Of a stretch of 64,000 nucleotides of DNA, positions 18,377 through 42,284 are shown piece after piece; positions within the stretch are counted from its first letter, which is position 1; every line of letters starts with the position of its first letter. The translations under genes and the position numbers were made by a program. Below the pieces are notes generated by a model. That model had not been told where the DNA came from. It worked only from the letters and a program-made list of their open reading frames with translations, and ran no database searches. This DNA is from Sabulibacter ruber (GTDB lineage: Bacteria; Bacteroidota; Bacteroidia; Cytophagales; Hymenobacteraceae): positions 1,736,001-1,800,000 of the forward strand of contig NZ_JAFFID010000001.1 of the NCBI RefSeq assembly GCF_017355955.1. Reading direction: 5' to 3'.

Positions 18377-19654
18377 TTAATTAACCGGCAGCACCAGCCG
18401 GAAACAGGTGCCCTGCTGCTCGGCGCTTTCCACGCTCACGTGTCCGTGATGGGCTTCCATGATGGCCTTCACGTAACTTAACCCCAGCCCGAAGCCTTTC
18501 ACGTTGTGCACGTTGCCGGTGGGCACGCGGTAAAACTTATCAAAGAGGAACTTCTGGAACTCCTGCTTTATCCCGATGCCTTTGTCCCGGATGCTGATCA
18601 GGATTCCCTGCTCCACATCGCGGGTACTCACTTCAATTTCGGGGGCCTGCGGCGAGTATTTTTCGGCGTTGTCCAGCAAGCTGTAGAGGGCGTTGGCTAC
18701 GTGCAGCCCATCGGCATGGATGAGGGTATGGGTGGCTTGCAGATCCAGGCGCAACTGGCCGGCCCGTTGCTGCAGACGCGGGGTAAGGTTTTGCCCGGTT
18801 TGTTGCAACAGGGCGTGAAGATCCACGGTTTCTTTCCTGAGCACCAGTTCCCGGCTTTCCATAGTAGCCATCTGCAGCACGCGCTCTACCTGGGCGCGCA
18901 GCCGCTCGTTCTCAGAATGGATAAGATCATGGTAGCGCGAAAGCCGGTCGGCGGGCAGCGTTTCGGCGCGTTTGCGGAGCACCTCAGAAGCTAGCCCTAT
19001 GTTGGTGATGGGCGTCTGCAGCTCGTGGGTGAGATTGTTGATGAAATCAGTCTTGAGCTCAGAAAGGCGTTTCTCCCGCAGAATCTGGATCATGGTGTAC
19101 CCGAAGAACAGTACCACCAGCAACACCGCACCCGTGCTGTACCACCAGAACTCCATCTCCTTCAGGATAAACGAGGTCTTGCCCGGAAACACCACCGCCA
19201 GGTTATACACGGGCACTGCCCCCACCTGCTCATGCCTGATCACCGGGGCCTTCCCGCCCACAACTGATTTCTGCGGAGCCGCTATGTACTGCCCAAACAT
19301 GAGCGTATCATCCAGGCTATTGTAGAGCCCAAATTCATAGCGCTCCTGCAACTGCCGTTTGGCAAATTCCTGCTGCAGCAGTTTACTGGCCTCGGTGGGG
19401 TCTACCGGGGCGTTCAGTTCCGCTACAAAGAAGTTGGATGCCACCTGCTGCACCGGCCTGGCCGAGGTAACCGGTTTCTGCGCTTTGGAAAGCAACTGGT
19501 CAGACACCTGGGTAAGGGCCACCTGTACACTGTGGTTGAACGCCCGTTCCTGGGCATTGTAGGCTTTGTTCAGCCACACCAACTGTACGCTCAGCAGCGC
19601 CACCAGCGCCACGCACGCCAATACCAGAATAACTTGGATCTTACGACGGCTCAT
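18377..19654 (-). CDS. Transmembrane sensor histidine kinase
   Basis: 425 residues. Two membrane segments (about 7-28 and 170-192) bracket a periplasmic sensor region of about 140 residues with no known fold. The DHp helix reads NNLTHELQTPITNIG with His210. The ATPase domain has N-box SLLDNAEKYS, G1 IRDKGIGI, F-box FLFDKFYRV and G2 GFGLGLSYV. Partner: probably the OmpR-type regulator at 14093, now separated by four or five genes. Three TTAAC half-sites upstream (19694-19730) fit autoregulation by an OmpR-type protein. Confidence 0.94.
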   Translation of the reverse strand: MSRRKIQVILVLACVALVALLSVQLVWLNKAYNAQERAFNHSVQVALTQVSDQLLSKAQKPVTSARPVQQVASNFFVAELNAPVDPTEASKLLQQEFAKRQLQERYEFGLYNSLDDTLMFGQYIAAPQKSVVGGKAPVIRHEQVGAVPVYNLAVVFPGKTSFILKEMEFWWYSTGAVLLVVLFFGYTMIQILREKRLSELKTDFINNLTHELQTPITNIGLASEVLRKRAETLPADRLSRYHDLIHSENERLRAQVERVLQMATMESRELVLRKETVDLHALLQQTGQNLTPRLQQRAGQLRLDLQATHTLIHADGLHVANALYSLLDNAEKYSPQAPEIEVSTRDVEQGILISIRDKGIGIKQEFQKFLFDKFYRVPTGNVHNVKGFGLGLSYVKAIMEAHHGHVSVESAEQQGTCFRLVLPVN

Positions 19655-19752: not shown

Positions 19753-19818
19753 TATGTTTGCAACGAAGCAGATTTCACCCGGAAATGGCCGGTCATGCCC
19801 TTAGAAGGGGTACGTTTG
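19753..19818 (+). promoter_or_regulatory. Two candidate -7 elements ahead of the DUF2723 gene
   Basis: TATGTTTG (19753-19760, followed by C) and TACGTTTG (19811-19818) both match TAnnTTTG. Neither has a clear TTG at the right distance. The second lies just before the compound palindrome, which would then be in the mRNA leader. Confidence 0.35.
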
Positions 19819-19839: not shown

Positions 19840-19965
19840 CCCTCGCTCGCCTCTGGCGAGTGTGAGCTATCAGGCGGCGTCTCGCCGCTATGCGGGATTT
19901 TACCCATATACCCATAGCGGCCAGAGGCCGCAACATAACGCACACTCGCCAGAGGCGAGCGAGGG
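19840..19965. repeat. Compound nested palindrome (REP/MITE-like)
   Basis: A 126-base element. The outer arms 19840-19864 and 19941-19965 are perfect 25-bp inverted repeats. Each arm is itself a hairpin: CTCGCCTCTGGCGAG on the left and CTCGCCAGAGGCGAG on the right. Inside are two more hairpins, GCGGCGTCTCGCCGC and GCGGCCAGAGGCCGC, and complementary CCGCTATG/CATAGCGG. All four small hairpins have TCT or AGA triloops, in mirrored order. It contains no gene. Confidence 0.85.
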
Positions 19966-20034
19966 AAAATGCAGCAGTCCTGCGCGAGGGATCGAAATCG
20001 GAGAAGTGGCATCAGAACACAAACACGAAAAACT

Positions 20035-23000
20035 ATGAGCACCATCACCAAAGCACCTGCCAGGGTAACAGTACAGGCAACTTTTCTCTTCACCAAACGG
20101 CAATTCATCCCGCTGTTTCTGGGCATTGCAGTCATGGCAACAGGCTTCGTTTTGATGTCCTTAGACAATACGCCGCACGGCTACGGGTTTCTGGGCCTCA
20201 CGCTTGGCCCTCTGCTGGTGGTACTGGGACTAGCGCTGCCGTTTTTTGGAATTTTACGGAAAAACAGCCCTGAAACAACTGAGCCTGCTTCTACTGCCTG
20301 GCGTGCTTTTCAGCGCTGGGACCTGGGACTGGGCATACTAGTTGGCTTGATTGCTTTGACCGTGTACGTGCTCACGCTGGAGCCCACCACCAGTTTCTGG
20401 GATACCGGGGAATTCATTGCGGCAGCGTACAAACTGCAGGTACCCCATCCGCCGGGGGCGCCGCTGTTTCTGCTCATCGGGCGGGTGTTTACCTTGCTGA
20501 GCTTCGGTGATGTGACCCGGGTTGCCTGGTGGATGAATTTCCTGTCGGCGTTGAGCAGCGCGGCCACCATCATGTTTCTGTTCTGGAGCATCACCCTGCT
20601 GGCTCAAAGGTTATTGTCCATTCCTGCGGATGGTCCCACCTCAACCCAACGCCTGCTCCTGCTGGCCAGCGGAACGGTGGGGGCTCTGGCTTTTGCCTTC
20701 ACCGATTCTTTCTGGTTCAGTGCGGTAGAGGCCGAGGTCTATGGCATGTCTTCGTTCTTCACGGCCATTGTGGTTTGGGCCGCCCTCAAATGGCAAGCCG
20801 AGGCTGACTCGCCGGAGGCGGACCGGTGGCTGTTGTTCCTGGCTTATCTGGTGGGCCTTTCCATTGGCGTGCATTTGCTCAATCTGGTGGCTTTGCCCGC
20901 TATTGCACTGCTGGTGTATTTCAGGAAGTACAGGCCTACCAAGTGGGGCGTTCTGGCGGCATTGTTTTTGGGCGGAGTGTTGGTGCTGGCGGTGATGGAA
21001 GGCGTGATCACGGGTTTGCCCTCGGTGGCGGGGGCGCTGGAGATTTTCGTTGTGAACAGCCTGGGTCTGCCGTATGGCGCGGGCGCAATTCTTTTTCTGC
21101 TGGGGCTCACCGGGGCCATTGTGTACGGTTTACGCTGGGCCAAAAGAACCAACAAAGTGCTGTGGCATAATGCCATCATTGCCTTTGTGCTGGTGCTGGT
21201 GGGCTATTCGTCTTACCTCATGGTGCCCATCCGGTCTGGTTACAACCCGCCCATTGATGAGAACAACCCAGAGAACCTGCTTTCTTTTGTAAGCTATCTT
21301 AAACGCGAGCAGTACGGCAGCCGGCCTTTGCTGTTCGGGCCGCAGTTCAACGCGCAGGCAGAGAACTTTGAGAAAACCGGCCCTGTTTACGCGCCCAAAA
21401 ACGGCCAATACGCCGTGGTAGATCACAAATATGAACCCATATATGCCGATCAGGAGAAAACGTTACTCCCCCGCCTCTACTCAGACCAACCCCTGCACCT
21501 GCGGGCCTATCAGTATTGGGGAGACGTGCAACAGGGCCAGAAACCTAGTTTCGGACAGAACCTGCGTTTTTTGTGGGATTACCAGCTGAACCATATGTAC
21601 TGGCGGTATTTCGGGTGGAACTTCATTGGCCGAGAGAGCGATGTACAGCACGCTGGGGTGCTCTGGCCCTGGGAAAAGAAAACCGATGTCCCCGCGCCTC
21701 TCTCCGAGAGCAAGTCCCGGAACCAGTTCTTCCTCCTGCCGCTGCTGCTGGGTGTTTTGGGGCTGTTTCTCCAATTCCGGCGCAGATTCACCGACGGTTG
21801 GGTTGTCCTGCTCCTGTTTTTCTTCACCGGCATTGCCATTGTGTTGTACCTGAACCAGCCGCCCGTAGAGCCGCGGGAGCGCGATTACACCTTTGCCGGT
21901 TCTTACTACGCCTTCAGTATCTGGATTGGATTAGGCGTGCTGGCCTTACACGAATTCCTCCGGAAATTCATCAAAGCCGAAATGACCTCAGTAGCGGCGG
22001 CAACGGTCCTCTCCCTCACGGTTCCTACCCTCCTCCTGGCCGAAGGCTACGATGACCACAACCGCTCTAACCGCTACCACGCCCTGGACTCGGCCAAGAA
22101 CCTGCTCAGCTCCGTAGCCCCCAACGCCATCCTGTTCACCAACGGCGATAATGACACGTTCCCGCTTTGGTACGCCCAGGAAGTAGAAGGCTTCCGGCCC
22201 GATGTGCGTGTGCTGGTGATGACCTACCTCAACACCGATTGGTACCTTGAACAGGCCCGCCGACAAATGAACACCTCGGCTCCGCTGCCGGCCACTATCC
22301 CCATGGAGCAATACGCGTTCAGCAGCAACAATTACCTGCCGTACGTGCCCAACCCCAGCGTGCAGGACAGCGGCATGGACCTGAACCAGTATCTGCAACT
22401 GCTCAGGCAAAACCACCCGGCGCTGCAGGTACAAACCCAGGACGGCCGCACCCTTACCACACTCCCTACCAAACGCCTCAGCTTGGTGGTGAACAAACAA
22501 GTTGTACTGACCAACGGAACCGTCTCGCCGGAGCGGGCAAGCCAAGTGACAGACGTAATGGCGTGGGAACTGAAAGCGGGTGCCCTGGAGAAAAAGCACT
22601 TGTTTATGCTGGACGTGATTGCCTCTAACCAATGGCAGCGACCTATTTACTTCTCCAGCACCGGCGCTGAAACTGCCGAACTGGGTTTACAGCCGTTCTT
22701 ACAACTGGAAGGCCAAGCCCTGCGGCTGGTGCCCGCCCGTAACCCCGATGCGCAGTCCGAGGCCTACGTTGACCGCCAGCGTACCCAGGAAAGCCTGCTG
22801 CAGAAGTTCCGATACACAGGGTTAACCAATCCAGACCAGCCTTACGAGGAGAACTTCGTGAACCAGACGGTACCCGTGTACCGCCGGAACTTCGCGGAGT
22901 TGGCTCTGGCTCATTTACAGGCCGGTGACACTGCCCAGGCCCGCAAAGCTTTGCAAACTTGTCTAAACCTGATGCCCGACAAAGGCTCACCGCACAATTA

Positions 23001-23268
23001 TGAAAGCGCGGCCCTGGTGTTGCCGCTGGCGCAGGCGGGACTTACCAAAGAAGCCCGGGAACTAACCAACCTTTTGAGAGCCCGCTTTGACACGCAACTC
23101 ACCTATTACGCAAGCCAGCCCCCCTACTTTGAGCGGGAACGGCAGGTAAATCTCTTCGGGCTGCAGAACCTGGTACAAGCCGCTCACGCCGCCCGCTTGC
23201 CAGAAGCCAGGCAACTGGAGGAGCTGTTTCTGCGGCACTATGGAATGGCCAATGGAATGAGTGATTGA
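20035..23268 (+). CDS. DUF2723 (GT-C fold, GT117-type) membrane protein
   Basis: 1077 residues from the ATG at 20035. An in-frame ATG at 19969 would translate the end of the compound palindrome region and lacks support. The N-terminal half has about 12 membrane helices with the DUF2723 signatures TLEPTTSFWDTGEFIAAAYK and VPHPPGAPLFLL; the Asp-Glu in FWDTGEF is the likely catalytic pair of GT-C glycosyltransferases. A conserved NQPPVEPRERDYTFAGSYYA loop and FTNGDNDTFPLWYAQE follow. The C-terminal third is periplasmic with TPR-like helices (LAHLQAGDTAQARKALQTCL). Family members are linked to protein O-glycosylation in Bacteroidota. A hairpin terminator lies at 23405. Confidence 0.9.
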   Translation: MSTITKAPARVTVQATFLFTKRQFIPLFLGIAVMATGFVLMSLDNTPHGYGFLGLTLGPLLVVLGLALPFFGILRKNSPETTEPASTAWRAFQRWDLGLGILVGLIALTVYVLTLEPTTSFWDTGEFIAAAYKLQVPHPPGAPLFLLIGRVFTLLSFGDVTRVAWWMNFLSALSSAATIMFLFWSITLLAQRLLSIPADGPTSTQRLLLLASGTVGALAFAFTDSFWFSAVEAEVYGMSSFFTAIVVWAALKWQAEADSPEADRWLLFLAYLVGLSIGVHLLNLVALPAIALLVYFRKYRPTKWGVLAALFLGGVLVLAVMEGVITGLPSVAGALEIFVVNSLGLPYGAGAILFLLGLTGAIVYGLRWAKRTNKVLWHNAIIAFVLVLVGYSSYLMVPIRSGYNPPIDENNPENLLSFVSYLKREQYGSRPLLFGPQFNAQAENFEKTGPVYAPKNGQYAVVDHKYEPIYADQEKTLLPRLYSDQPLHLRAYQYWGDVQQGQKPSFGQNLRFLWDYQLNHMYWRYFGWNFIGRESDVQHAGVLWPWEKKTDVPAPLSESKSRNQFFLLPLLLGVLGLFLQFRRRFTDGWVVLLLFFFTGIAIVLYLNQPPVEPRERDYTFAGSYYAFSIWIGLGVLALHEFLRKFIKAEMTSVAAATVLSLTVPTLLLAEGYDDHNRSNRYHALDSAKNLLSSVAPNAILFTNGDNDTFPLWYAQEVEGFRPDVRVLVMTYLNTDWYLEQARRQMNTSAPLPATIPMEQYAFSSNNYLPYVPNPSVQDSGMDLNQYLQLLRQNHPALQVQTQDGRTLTTLPTKRLSLVVNKQVVLTNGTVSPERASQVTDVMAWELKAGALEKKHLFMLDVIASNQWQRPIYFSSTGAETAELGLQPFLQLEGQALRLVPARNPDAQSEAYVDRQRTQESLLQKFRYTGLTNPDQPYEENFVNQTVPVYRRNFAELALAHLQAGDTAQARKALQTCLNLMPDKGSPHNYESAALVLPLAQAGLTKEARELTNLLRARFDTQLTYYASQPPYFERERQVNLFGLQNLVQAAHAARLPEARQLEELFLRHYGMANGMSD

Positions 23269-41979: not shown

Positions 41980-42284
41980 GGTTGATGTTGCTTTACCTGA
42001 CAGGGGTACAATCTAGCTTTATCATAGATTTATTTGTACTTTCATCTTGCCACTCGGGCTGCCGTCATTGGCAGATTATGTAAGCAGACCCTTCTCTCCT
42101 TGAGCGAGATACGAACCTTCACCTCTCCTAATTACCTCTCCCCTATACCCCACCGAAAGCAGGAGCCTTCTCCTCTTTCTTCATGCATTGTTCTAACAAG
42201 TGAGTGGAGTTCAGAAACCACTGCAAAAACGAGGCGTACCCGAAAAGCCACACGAGTAGGTCAAACCTTTTACTTCCATATAAG

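What the first reader, a model, noticed from the sequence alone, without database searches (positions are those of the whole stretch)
19840..19965. 126-base compound palindrome built of four triloop hairpins
Perfect 25-bp outer arms enclose two more hairpins; every small hairpin has a TCT or AGA triloop in mirrored order. This architecture is like a REPIN/BIME or a small MITE. It sits just upstream of a large membrane-protein gene, possibly inside its mRNA leader.
Basis: seen in the sequence. Interest (0 to 1): 0.65.

Follow-up and report, generated by a model that had tools for sequence, protein, structure and literature searches.

The report
Double-hairpin REPIN family with its transposase
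The palindrome is one of about fifty scattered copies of a small repeat whose two arms each carry a pair of tiny hairpins, probably spread by a matching transposase gene in the same bacterial genome; it is a worked-out example of a known kind of element (REPIN) whose form in this phylum is barely described.

Summary
In detail: window 19840-19965 is a 126-bp compound palindrome with perfect 25-bp outer arms and four triloop hairpins. In the same genome I read 44 two-armed and 5 one-armed copies. A REP-associated tyrosine transposase (RAYT) gene lies between two inverted copies; it passes the NCBIfam RAYT cut-off, has the motifs of subclass 2.6 (group 5), and a 73% relative is modelled with solved RAYT-REP complex 4er8 as best match. 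New details: each arm holds two hairpins. Outer hairpins match between the arms of a copy; inner ones come in two kinds, usually one of each (37 of 44; 20 of 24 and 14 of 19 in two relatives). At 10 sites shared with a sister species the outer arm, loop apart, differs at 6 of 440 bases, the centre at 59 of 318, although the sister has no RAYT above 49% identity. Movement was not seen, and a predicted link of orientation with replication strand was not found. The window copy probably lies in the mRNA leader of a TMEM260-like gene.

The parts
19840..19965 (.). whole REPIN copy (G arm left, C arm right)
19840..19864 (+). left outer arm CCCTCGCTCGCCTCTGGCGAGTGTG, perfect inverted repeat of 19941-19965
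19846..19860 (+). outer hairpin HP1, left (loop TCT)
19865..19873 (+). 9-nt linker, left
   Evidence: linker is 9 nt in 82 of 88 arms of the 44 copies
19874..19888 (+). inner hairpin HP2, left, G type (GCGGCG-TCT-CGCCGC)
19889..19916 (.). variable centre
19917..19931 (-). inner hairpin HP2, right, C type (GCGGCC-TCT-GGCCGC read on the - strand)
19932..19940 (-). 9-nt linker, right
19941..19965 (-). right outer arm
19945..19959 (-). outer hairpin HP1, right (loop TCT read on the - strand)
19753..19760 (+). TATGTTTG, promoter-like TANNTTTG motif at the same offset in 8 of 8 aligned genomes; would put the element in the leader of the next gene (inference)
   Evidence: meaning of the motif recalled
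20035..23268 (+). TMEM260-like membrane protein gene (PF11028; DUF3098 match at the N end) downstream of the element; start codon at 20035 chosen by me within the ORF that begins at 19969
18377..19654 (-). histidine kinase gene, divergent neighbour

Best explanation
It is one copy of a REPIN family: a non-autonomous, RAYT-associated palindromic mobile element of the Bacteroidota type (TnpA_REP subclass 2.6 = RAYT group 5). Each copy is two inverted arms around a variable centre; each arm is a short tag, an outer hairpin, a 9-nt linker and an inner hairpin. Most likely mechanism: when the site is single-stranded the arm hairpins fold; the RAYT, an HUH endonuclease with one catalytic tyrosine, recognises them, cuts beside the arms and moves or copies the arm-centre-arm unit to another intergenic site. 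Shown: the anatomy, the family, the RAYT between copies, conservation of both hairpin stems as opposed to linker and centre, and presence or absence among relatives at the window site. Inferred: the chemistry, that this RAYT acts on these arms, and that there was movement in this lineage. In the window the copy sits in the probable 5' leader of a TMEM260-like gene, where it would form a strong mRNA hairpin; an effect on expression is possible but untested.
For: 44 two-armed and 5 one-armed copies at different sites; 45 forward and 43 reverse exact matches of an 18-base arm pattern in the genome, 0 in the reversed-pattern control. RAYT gene L049:2162-2692(-) between two 180-bp copies in inverted order; NCBIfam NF047646 REP-associated tyrosine transposase 100.8 bits, cut-off 80; H59, H61 and Y143 invariant in the 19 sequences aligned; NHLH, WQ and YIHQNP as tabled for subclass 2.6 in PMC6006769. 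Model of the 73% Pontibacter relative, pLDDT 92.5; top PDB match 4er8, a RAYT bound to a REP hairpin, E 2.2e-7, TM 0.64/0.68. Two genomes with 69% RAYT orthologues, G013 and G034, have element matches on both sides of the gene (sequence of G013). Of 39 non-consensus inner-stem pairs in 44 copies, 21 are compensated locally and 0 mirrored in the other arm. Window site: a copy with its left outer hairpin gone in the sister G002, no arm found in 6 other relatives with the same gene pair.
Against: No movement was seen, no empty site with exact junctions was found, and no target duplication could be judged. Four copy-rich relatives (G002, G005, G010, G030) have no RAYT above 51% identity to this one, yet outer arms stay conserved in G002. 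Replication-strand bias, expected if insertion follows IS200/IS605 rules, was not found. No GTRG tag at the hairpin feet. The single-strand folds favour one long stem, not the four small hairpins.
Confidence: 0.88

Rival explanations
1. The copies are now host-used structural elements (3' mRNA stabilisers, terminators or chromosome sites) kept by host selection; the RAYT is only their historical source. This is compatible with the REPIN identity and concerns present function.
For: At 10 shared sites the outer arm (loop apart) differs at 6 of 440 bases, the centre at 59 of 318, although G002 has no RAYT above 49% identity. By a rough ORF choice 16 of 44 copies lie between convergent genes and 21 between co-directional ones, 4 between divergent ones.
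Against: Six relatives with the same gene pair have no copy at the window site. The RAYT may have left G002 recently. The third base of the HP1 loop changed in 9 of 20 arms, so the arms are not simply frozen.
Confidence: 0.3
2. A DDE-transposase MITE whose 25-bp outer arms are ordinary terminal inverted repeats.
For: Terminal inverted repeats, small size, many copies.
Against: A RAYT lies between copies. The hairpins inside the arms are kept by local compensation, which ends bound as duplex do not need. No shared flanking bases beyond the C/G run at the arm ends appear in position tallies, though no formal duplication test was run and no search for DDE transposases was made.
Confidence: 0.03
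3. A regulatory RNA leader (riboswitch or attenuator) special to the TMEM260-like gene.
For: Probable leader position and a very stable fold.
Against: The same sequence lies at dozens of other places; no Rfam match at the site at gathering thresholds; no copy at the orthologous place in 6 relatives.
Confidence: 0.03

Closest known systems
REPINs of Pseudomonas fluorescens (Bertels and Rainey 2011, PMC3116915; abstract and passages seen)
   Same: Two inverted conserved ends around a less conserved spacer, associated with a RAYT, extragenic, the doublet as unit.
   Different: There each end overlaps one REP; here each arm holds two hairpins, has no GTRG tag, and the inner hairpins of the two arms usually differ.
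TnpA_REP subclass 2.6 / RAYT group 5 systems of Bacteroidetes (Quentin et al. 2018, PMC6006769; section 12 and passages seen; supplements not seen)
   Same: Same transposase motifs, same phylum, no GT[AG]G, repeat copies beside the gene and elsewhere in the genome. This is the kind to which I assign the finding.
   Different: The text read gives only 'atypical secondary structures' and 'a weaker secondary structure'; here the predicted structure is strong and the anatomy is worked out.
TIRtrons with double palindromic TIRs, and heterodimer REPs (Di Nocera et al. 2013, PMC3733652; abstract, sections 14 and 16 and one passage seen)
   Same: Double palindromic inverted repeats beside Y1 transposases; many REP dimers are heterodimers, for which the paper has 'no obvious explanation'.
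   Different: There the two REPs of a dimer differ; here only the inner hairpin differs while the outer one is matched.
E. coli REPtron (Y and Z2 REPs, as described in PMC6006769 section 12)
   Same: Paired inverted REPs of two kinds around a RAYT gene.
   Different: GTAG tag, another RAYT subclass (2.2).

Membership tests
REPIN / RAYT system, subclass 2.6 type | two inverted REP-like arms forming one unit | tested here: met
   44 two-armed copies; in the arm list each is a + arm followed by a - arm
REPIN / RAYT system, subclass 2.6 type | dispersed, multicopy, extragenic | tested here: met
   41 of 44 lie between two ORFs picked by a simple rule, 1 inside a picked ORF, 2 with one neighbour missing
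REPIN / RAYT system, subclass 2.6 type | RAYT gene flanked by copies | tested here: met
   again in G013
REPIN / RAYT system, subclass 2.6 type | RAYT motifs NH[LIV]H, WQ, YIH[QN]NP | tested here: met
   NHLH, FWQY, YIHQNP against the table in PMC6006769
REPIN / RAYT system, subclass 2.6 type | place of this RAYT in a tree with subclass 2.6 reference sequences | not tested
   reference set not held; no tree was built
REPIN / RAYT system, subclass 2.6 type | RAYT binds and cuts the repeat | not testable with these tools
   needs biochemistry
canonical GTAG REP | GT[AG]G at the foot of the hairpin | tested here: not met
   CTCG before HP1, mixed bases before HP2; CACA before HP1 on the other strand
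E. coli BIME/REPtron | GTAG-tagged Y/Z REPs with a subclass 2.2 RAYT | tested here: not met
   no GTAG; RAYT motifs differ from the 2.2 row (DHLH, WE, YIHYNP)
IS200/IS605-like insertion | orientation tied to replication strand | tested here: not met
   37 C/G copies: negative GC skew GC 13, CG 9; positive or near-zero start of C111 and other positive regions GC 5, CG 10; counted by hand, no formal test; no trend in G013
DDE-type MITE | target-site duplication | tested here: inconclusive
   no shared bases beyond the arm ends in position tallies of flanks, but no exact empty site

The most novel reading that the evidence does not exclude
The element is a built-in heterodimer. The outer hairpins of the two arms must match each other, because they anneal into a 25-bp stem or are copied from one another. 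The inner hairpins must differ, one C type and one G type, so that they stay two separate hairpins and give the unit a left and a right end for the RAYT. The arm-RAYT-arm unit is the autonomous form, which moves as a whole; the REPINs are its internal derivatives, and the host goes on keeping them after the RAYT is gone.
Probability: 0.22. Interest if true: 0.7.

Novelty: new variant of a known kind. Interest (0 to 1): 0.5.

Why it matters
How RAYTs that lack GTAG recognition read their repeats is open, and the repeats of the Bacteroidota subclass are named only as atypical in the texts read. The matched-outer, unlike-inner rule, seen in three genomes of one genus, gives a concrete substrate for binding and cleavage tests and bears on the published puzzle of why REP dimers are often heterodimers (PMC3733652). 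Conservation of arms in a species without a close RAYT makes 'selfish or useful' testable within one genus.

Tried and rejected
Replication-strand hypothesis: the orientation of the 37 C/G copies looked clustered by contig, so GC skew was sampled in 40 stretches of 20 kb and the test repeated in a one-contig relative, G013 (types). It failed: negative-skew regions GC 13, CG 9; the rest GC 5, CG 10 (counted by hand, no formal test). In G013 negative GC 5, CG 2; positive GC 2, CG 2; copies that are C/C, unclassified or in regions of near-zero or uncertain skew were left out. The clustering by contig stays unexplained. Polarity relative to co-directional genes: C arm upstream 10, G arm upstream 7.

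A plasmid search and one exact-pattern scan of viral contigs found nothing. Five literature searches listed no paper that I recognised as describing this family; of the three papers, one (PMC4511580, Pontibacter roseus) was searched for terms and names palindromic repeats only in a CRISPR reference, the other two were seen as listings. The supplements of PMC6006769, which hold its repeat table, could not be read, so absence from print is not shown.

Sequence search of the RAYT against the PDB was weak (4er8 E 0.46); the fold search of a relative settled the fold.

Direction of the RAYT change between G000 and G002 stays open: at the RAYT locus G002 has one C/C copy with what I read as an inner-hairpin remnant, and no significant RAYT match. 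The remnant favours a loss, but the RAYT stands in unrelated neighbourhoods in the other genomes compared, so a gain in G000 is possible; my notebook entry 5 puts it as a loss, which is too firm. An earlier count gave 7 wobble and 11 broken inner pairs; recounted they are 8 and 10. Entry 4 gives G013 positive as GC 3; by the types it is GC 2. Entry 6 cites for the promoter-like motif; it is.

Full report
What is there. Window 19840-19965 reads as the finding says: perfect 25-bp outer arms and four hairpins of 6 bp with 3-nt loops. It folds far better than shuffles as RNA (z -12.33) and as DNA (z -11.19), in both cases as one long stem. The hairpins are of two sorts: the outer pair (HP1, CTCGCC-TCT-GGCGAG) is the same on both sides; the inner pair (HP2) has a G-C closing pair on the left (G type) and C-G on the right (C type), each arm read inward. 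The names C type and G type are mine.

A family. The window is C111:1736001-1800000 of a 6.16-Mb draft genome in 222 contigs. BLAST with the element gave 90 matching pieces there; 40 of 54 first-look candidates were scored, so this is a lower bound. An exact 18-base arm pattern gave 45 forward and 43 reverse matches and none for the reversed pattern. I scanned 48 fetched stretches and the window; 45 of the stretches and the window hold arms, the other three are the loci of the other RAYT genes. They give 44 two-armed copies and 5 one-armed ones. In L018 the first pairing began at a decayed extra arm, and I trimmed it to the inner, intact copy before counting. Diverged copies that the patterns miss are not counted. 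For the five one-armed loci a loose search found no convincing partner (L055 has a possible decayed one).

Anatomy of an arm. Reading inward: CCTCG, HP1, TGTG, a linker (9 nt in 82 of 88 arms), HP2, then a loose centre; from CTCG to CGAG the copies measure 118 to 303 bp. HP1 pairs in 527 of 528 stem positions. HP2 pairs in 96.4% of stem positions within an arm and in 75.6% between arms. Of 39 non-consensus HP2 pairs (closing pair not counted), 21 are compensated inside the arm, 8 are G-T wobbles, 10 are broken, and 0 are mirrored in the other arm (wobbles and breaks counted by hand). Most compensations are at two stem positions, so events are fewer than copies; and HP2 was located as the best local hairpin, which favours pairing, though its position is nearly fixed. 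So at the inner level it is the small hairpins that are kept, not one long cruciform.

Matched outside, unlike inside. 37 of 44 copies hold one C-type and one G-type inner hairpin, 6 are C/C and 1 is G/G; shuffling gives 21.9 mixed on average, at most 35 in 20,000 shuffles. In G002, 20 of 24 classified copies are mixed (expected 11.9; 10 of 20,000 shuffles reach it; 2 of 26 dropped as unclassified; these are about half of the copies there). In G013, 14 of 19 are mixed (expected 9.1; 407 of 20,000; 3 of 22 dropped). This typing was automatic, and in a few copies (L213:8496, L186) the inner hairpin was visibly mislocated. The outer hairpins do the reverse: the third loop base of HP1, unpaired in a local hairpin, agrees between the arms in 31 of 38 copies (expected 19.9; 0 of 4,000 shuffles; 6 copies with another linker length dropped), while none of seven variable linker columns is significantly concordant, and the two HP2 closing columns agree in 7 of 38 (expected 19.1 and 18.5). 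The HP1 loop agrees in 19 of 22 copies of G013 (expected 9.9) and 19 of 26 of G002 (expected 12.6, P 0.0074); the HP1 closing base in 22 of 22 in G013 (expected 12.3); in G002 that base does not vary. Two readings remain for the outer match: the arms anneal into a stem that is selected, or one arm is copied onto the other. Shared descent from a heterotypic ancestor may explain part of the inner rule, since some positions inside HP2 also tend to differ between arms.

The transposase. PF01797 finds four Y1 genes in the genome. One, L049:2162-2692(-), lies between two 180-bp copies of this element in inverted order. It passes the NCBIfam RAYT model (100.8 bits, cut-off 80) and Pfam Y1_Tnp (29.6 bits, cut-off 23). 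H59, H61 and Y143 are invariant in the 19 homologues aligned. A model of the 73% Pontibacter relative (pLDDT 92.5) has 4er8, a RAYT bound to a REP hairpin, as its top PDB match (E 2.2e-7). The motifs fit subclass 2.6 of Quentin et al., to which Bertels group 5 is assigned. That paper says the repeats of this subclass lack GT[AG]G, are atypical secondary structures with copies elsewhere in the genome, and that the region of the protein that binds the GTAG tag is not conserved in this subclass (section 12).

Wider view. Of 59 genomes (own included), 10 match the element and 38 match some RAYT homologue. RAYTs at 69% identity occur in G034 and G013, with element matches on both sides of the gene. 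G002, G005, G010 and G030 have many element matches but no RAYT above 51%. Around 51 RAYT loci, 44 have inverted repeats on the two sides of the gene that beat 200 approximate dinucleotide shuffles (p <= 0.01), 7 do not; in 17 of the 44 both repeats contain at least two strict hairpins. Two of the 51, L072 and L092, appear to be the same gene, and the set probably includes other subclasses. In two Pontibacter loci (L091, L092) the gene stands between single arms; in a third (L093) one side is a single arm and the other a full copy. No shared neighbour gene was found in any of 66 pairs of 12 RAYT loci (tblastx); most are distant relatives, so this is weak evidence that the RAYT unit moves.

Age and conservation. 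Of 26 copies read in G002, 15 have the flanks of a G000 copy on both sides (one of them the RAYT locus), 1 on one side, and 10 have none or only weak matches. I aligned 15 pairs: the 14 two-sided ones other than the RAYT locus and the one-sided one. Ten, picked by eye because they align through the centre, show changes at 6 of 440 outer-arm bases without loop, 9 of 60 HP1 loop bases, 12 of 300 in HP2, 29 of 180 in the linker, 59 of 318 in the centre and 254 of 1,344 in flanks (parts of some flanks are not homologous, which inflates the last figure). The other five share neighbours but not the centre, and 3 of these 5 have the C/G order reversed, as separate insertions would. At the RAYT locus G002 has one 226-bp C/C copy, with what I read as an inner-hairpin remnant, and no significant RAYT match.

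The window site. In the spacer between the histidine kinase and the TMEM260-like gene G002 has a copy whose left outer hairpin is gone; six other relatives with the same gene pair show no arm (one further relative, L126, was dropped because its contig ends there). Three of the six have very short spacers; two others (L127, L132) carry different palindromic repeats there, seen by eye. TANNTTTG, which I recall as the Bacteroidota -7 promoter motif, stands at the same offset in 8 of 8 genomes; a partner -33 box was not established. So the element probably lies in the leader of the TMEM260-like mRNA. By the rough ORF choice this is one of 4 of 44 copies between divergent genes, so it is not typical of the family.

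What failed. A link of orientation with replication strand was looked for and not found. No exact empty site or target duplication could be shown.

Place among known things. REPIN-like in build, and by motifs and arrangement a member of the RAYT-associated repeats of subclass 2.6; not a canonical GTAG REP and not an E. coli BIME. Heterodimer REPs and double palindromic TIRs are described in PMC3733652 (sections 14 and 16). What I have not seen in the parts of papers read is the two-hairpin arm with matched outer and unlike inner hairpins.

Host. G034 agrees with Pontibacter arcticus in the contig position of the RAYT and is in the same family as the window genome, so the host probably belongs to the family of Pontibacter, Hymenobacteraceae in the NCBI taxonomy; its genus is not known to me.

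Noticed in passing
own genome; L050; centres of L047 and L054: A second palindrome family, GGCGCGGAAGTNACTTCCGNGCC, with 69 forward and 69 reverse matches (up to 1 mismatch; one place can match on both strands), two of them beside a second RAYT gene (C111:1719023), and copies nested inside the centres of two REPINs.
   Followed up: partly
L051 and L052: The other two RAYT genes of the genome have their own, different inverted repeats nearby, suggesting one repeat family per RAYT.
   Followed up: partly
10 sites shared by G000 and G002: The third base of the HP1 loop differs in 9 of 20 arms between the two species; at the 3 sites with unlike loops in both species the T and C forms are on opposite arms. 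Unexplained.
   Followed up: no
contigs of the own genome: The C/G order of mixed copies is clustered by contig (C145 GC 4 of 4, C178 CG 5 of 5, C156 CG 6 of 7), but not by GC skew. Unexplained.
   Followed up: partly
L127 and L132 (relatives), histidine kinase/TMEM260 spacer: The same spacer carries different palindromic repeats in two other relatives, as if it were an insertion hot spot (by eye).
   Followed up: no
window 42199-42266 +: Rfam DUF805 RNA (RF03081), 70.8 bits, gathering score 51.1.
   Followed up: no
L059 1058-1232: One REPIN centre holds a CAACA tandem repeat that the orthologous copy in G002 (L206) lacks.
   Followed up: no
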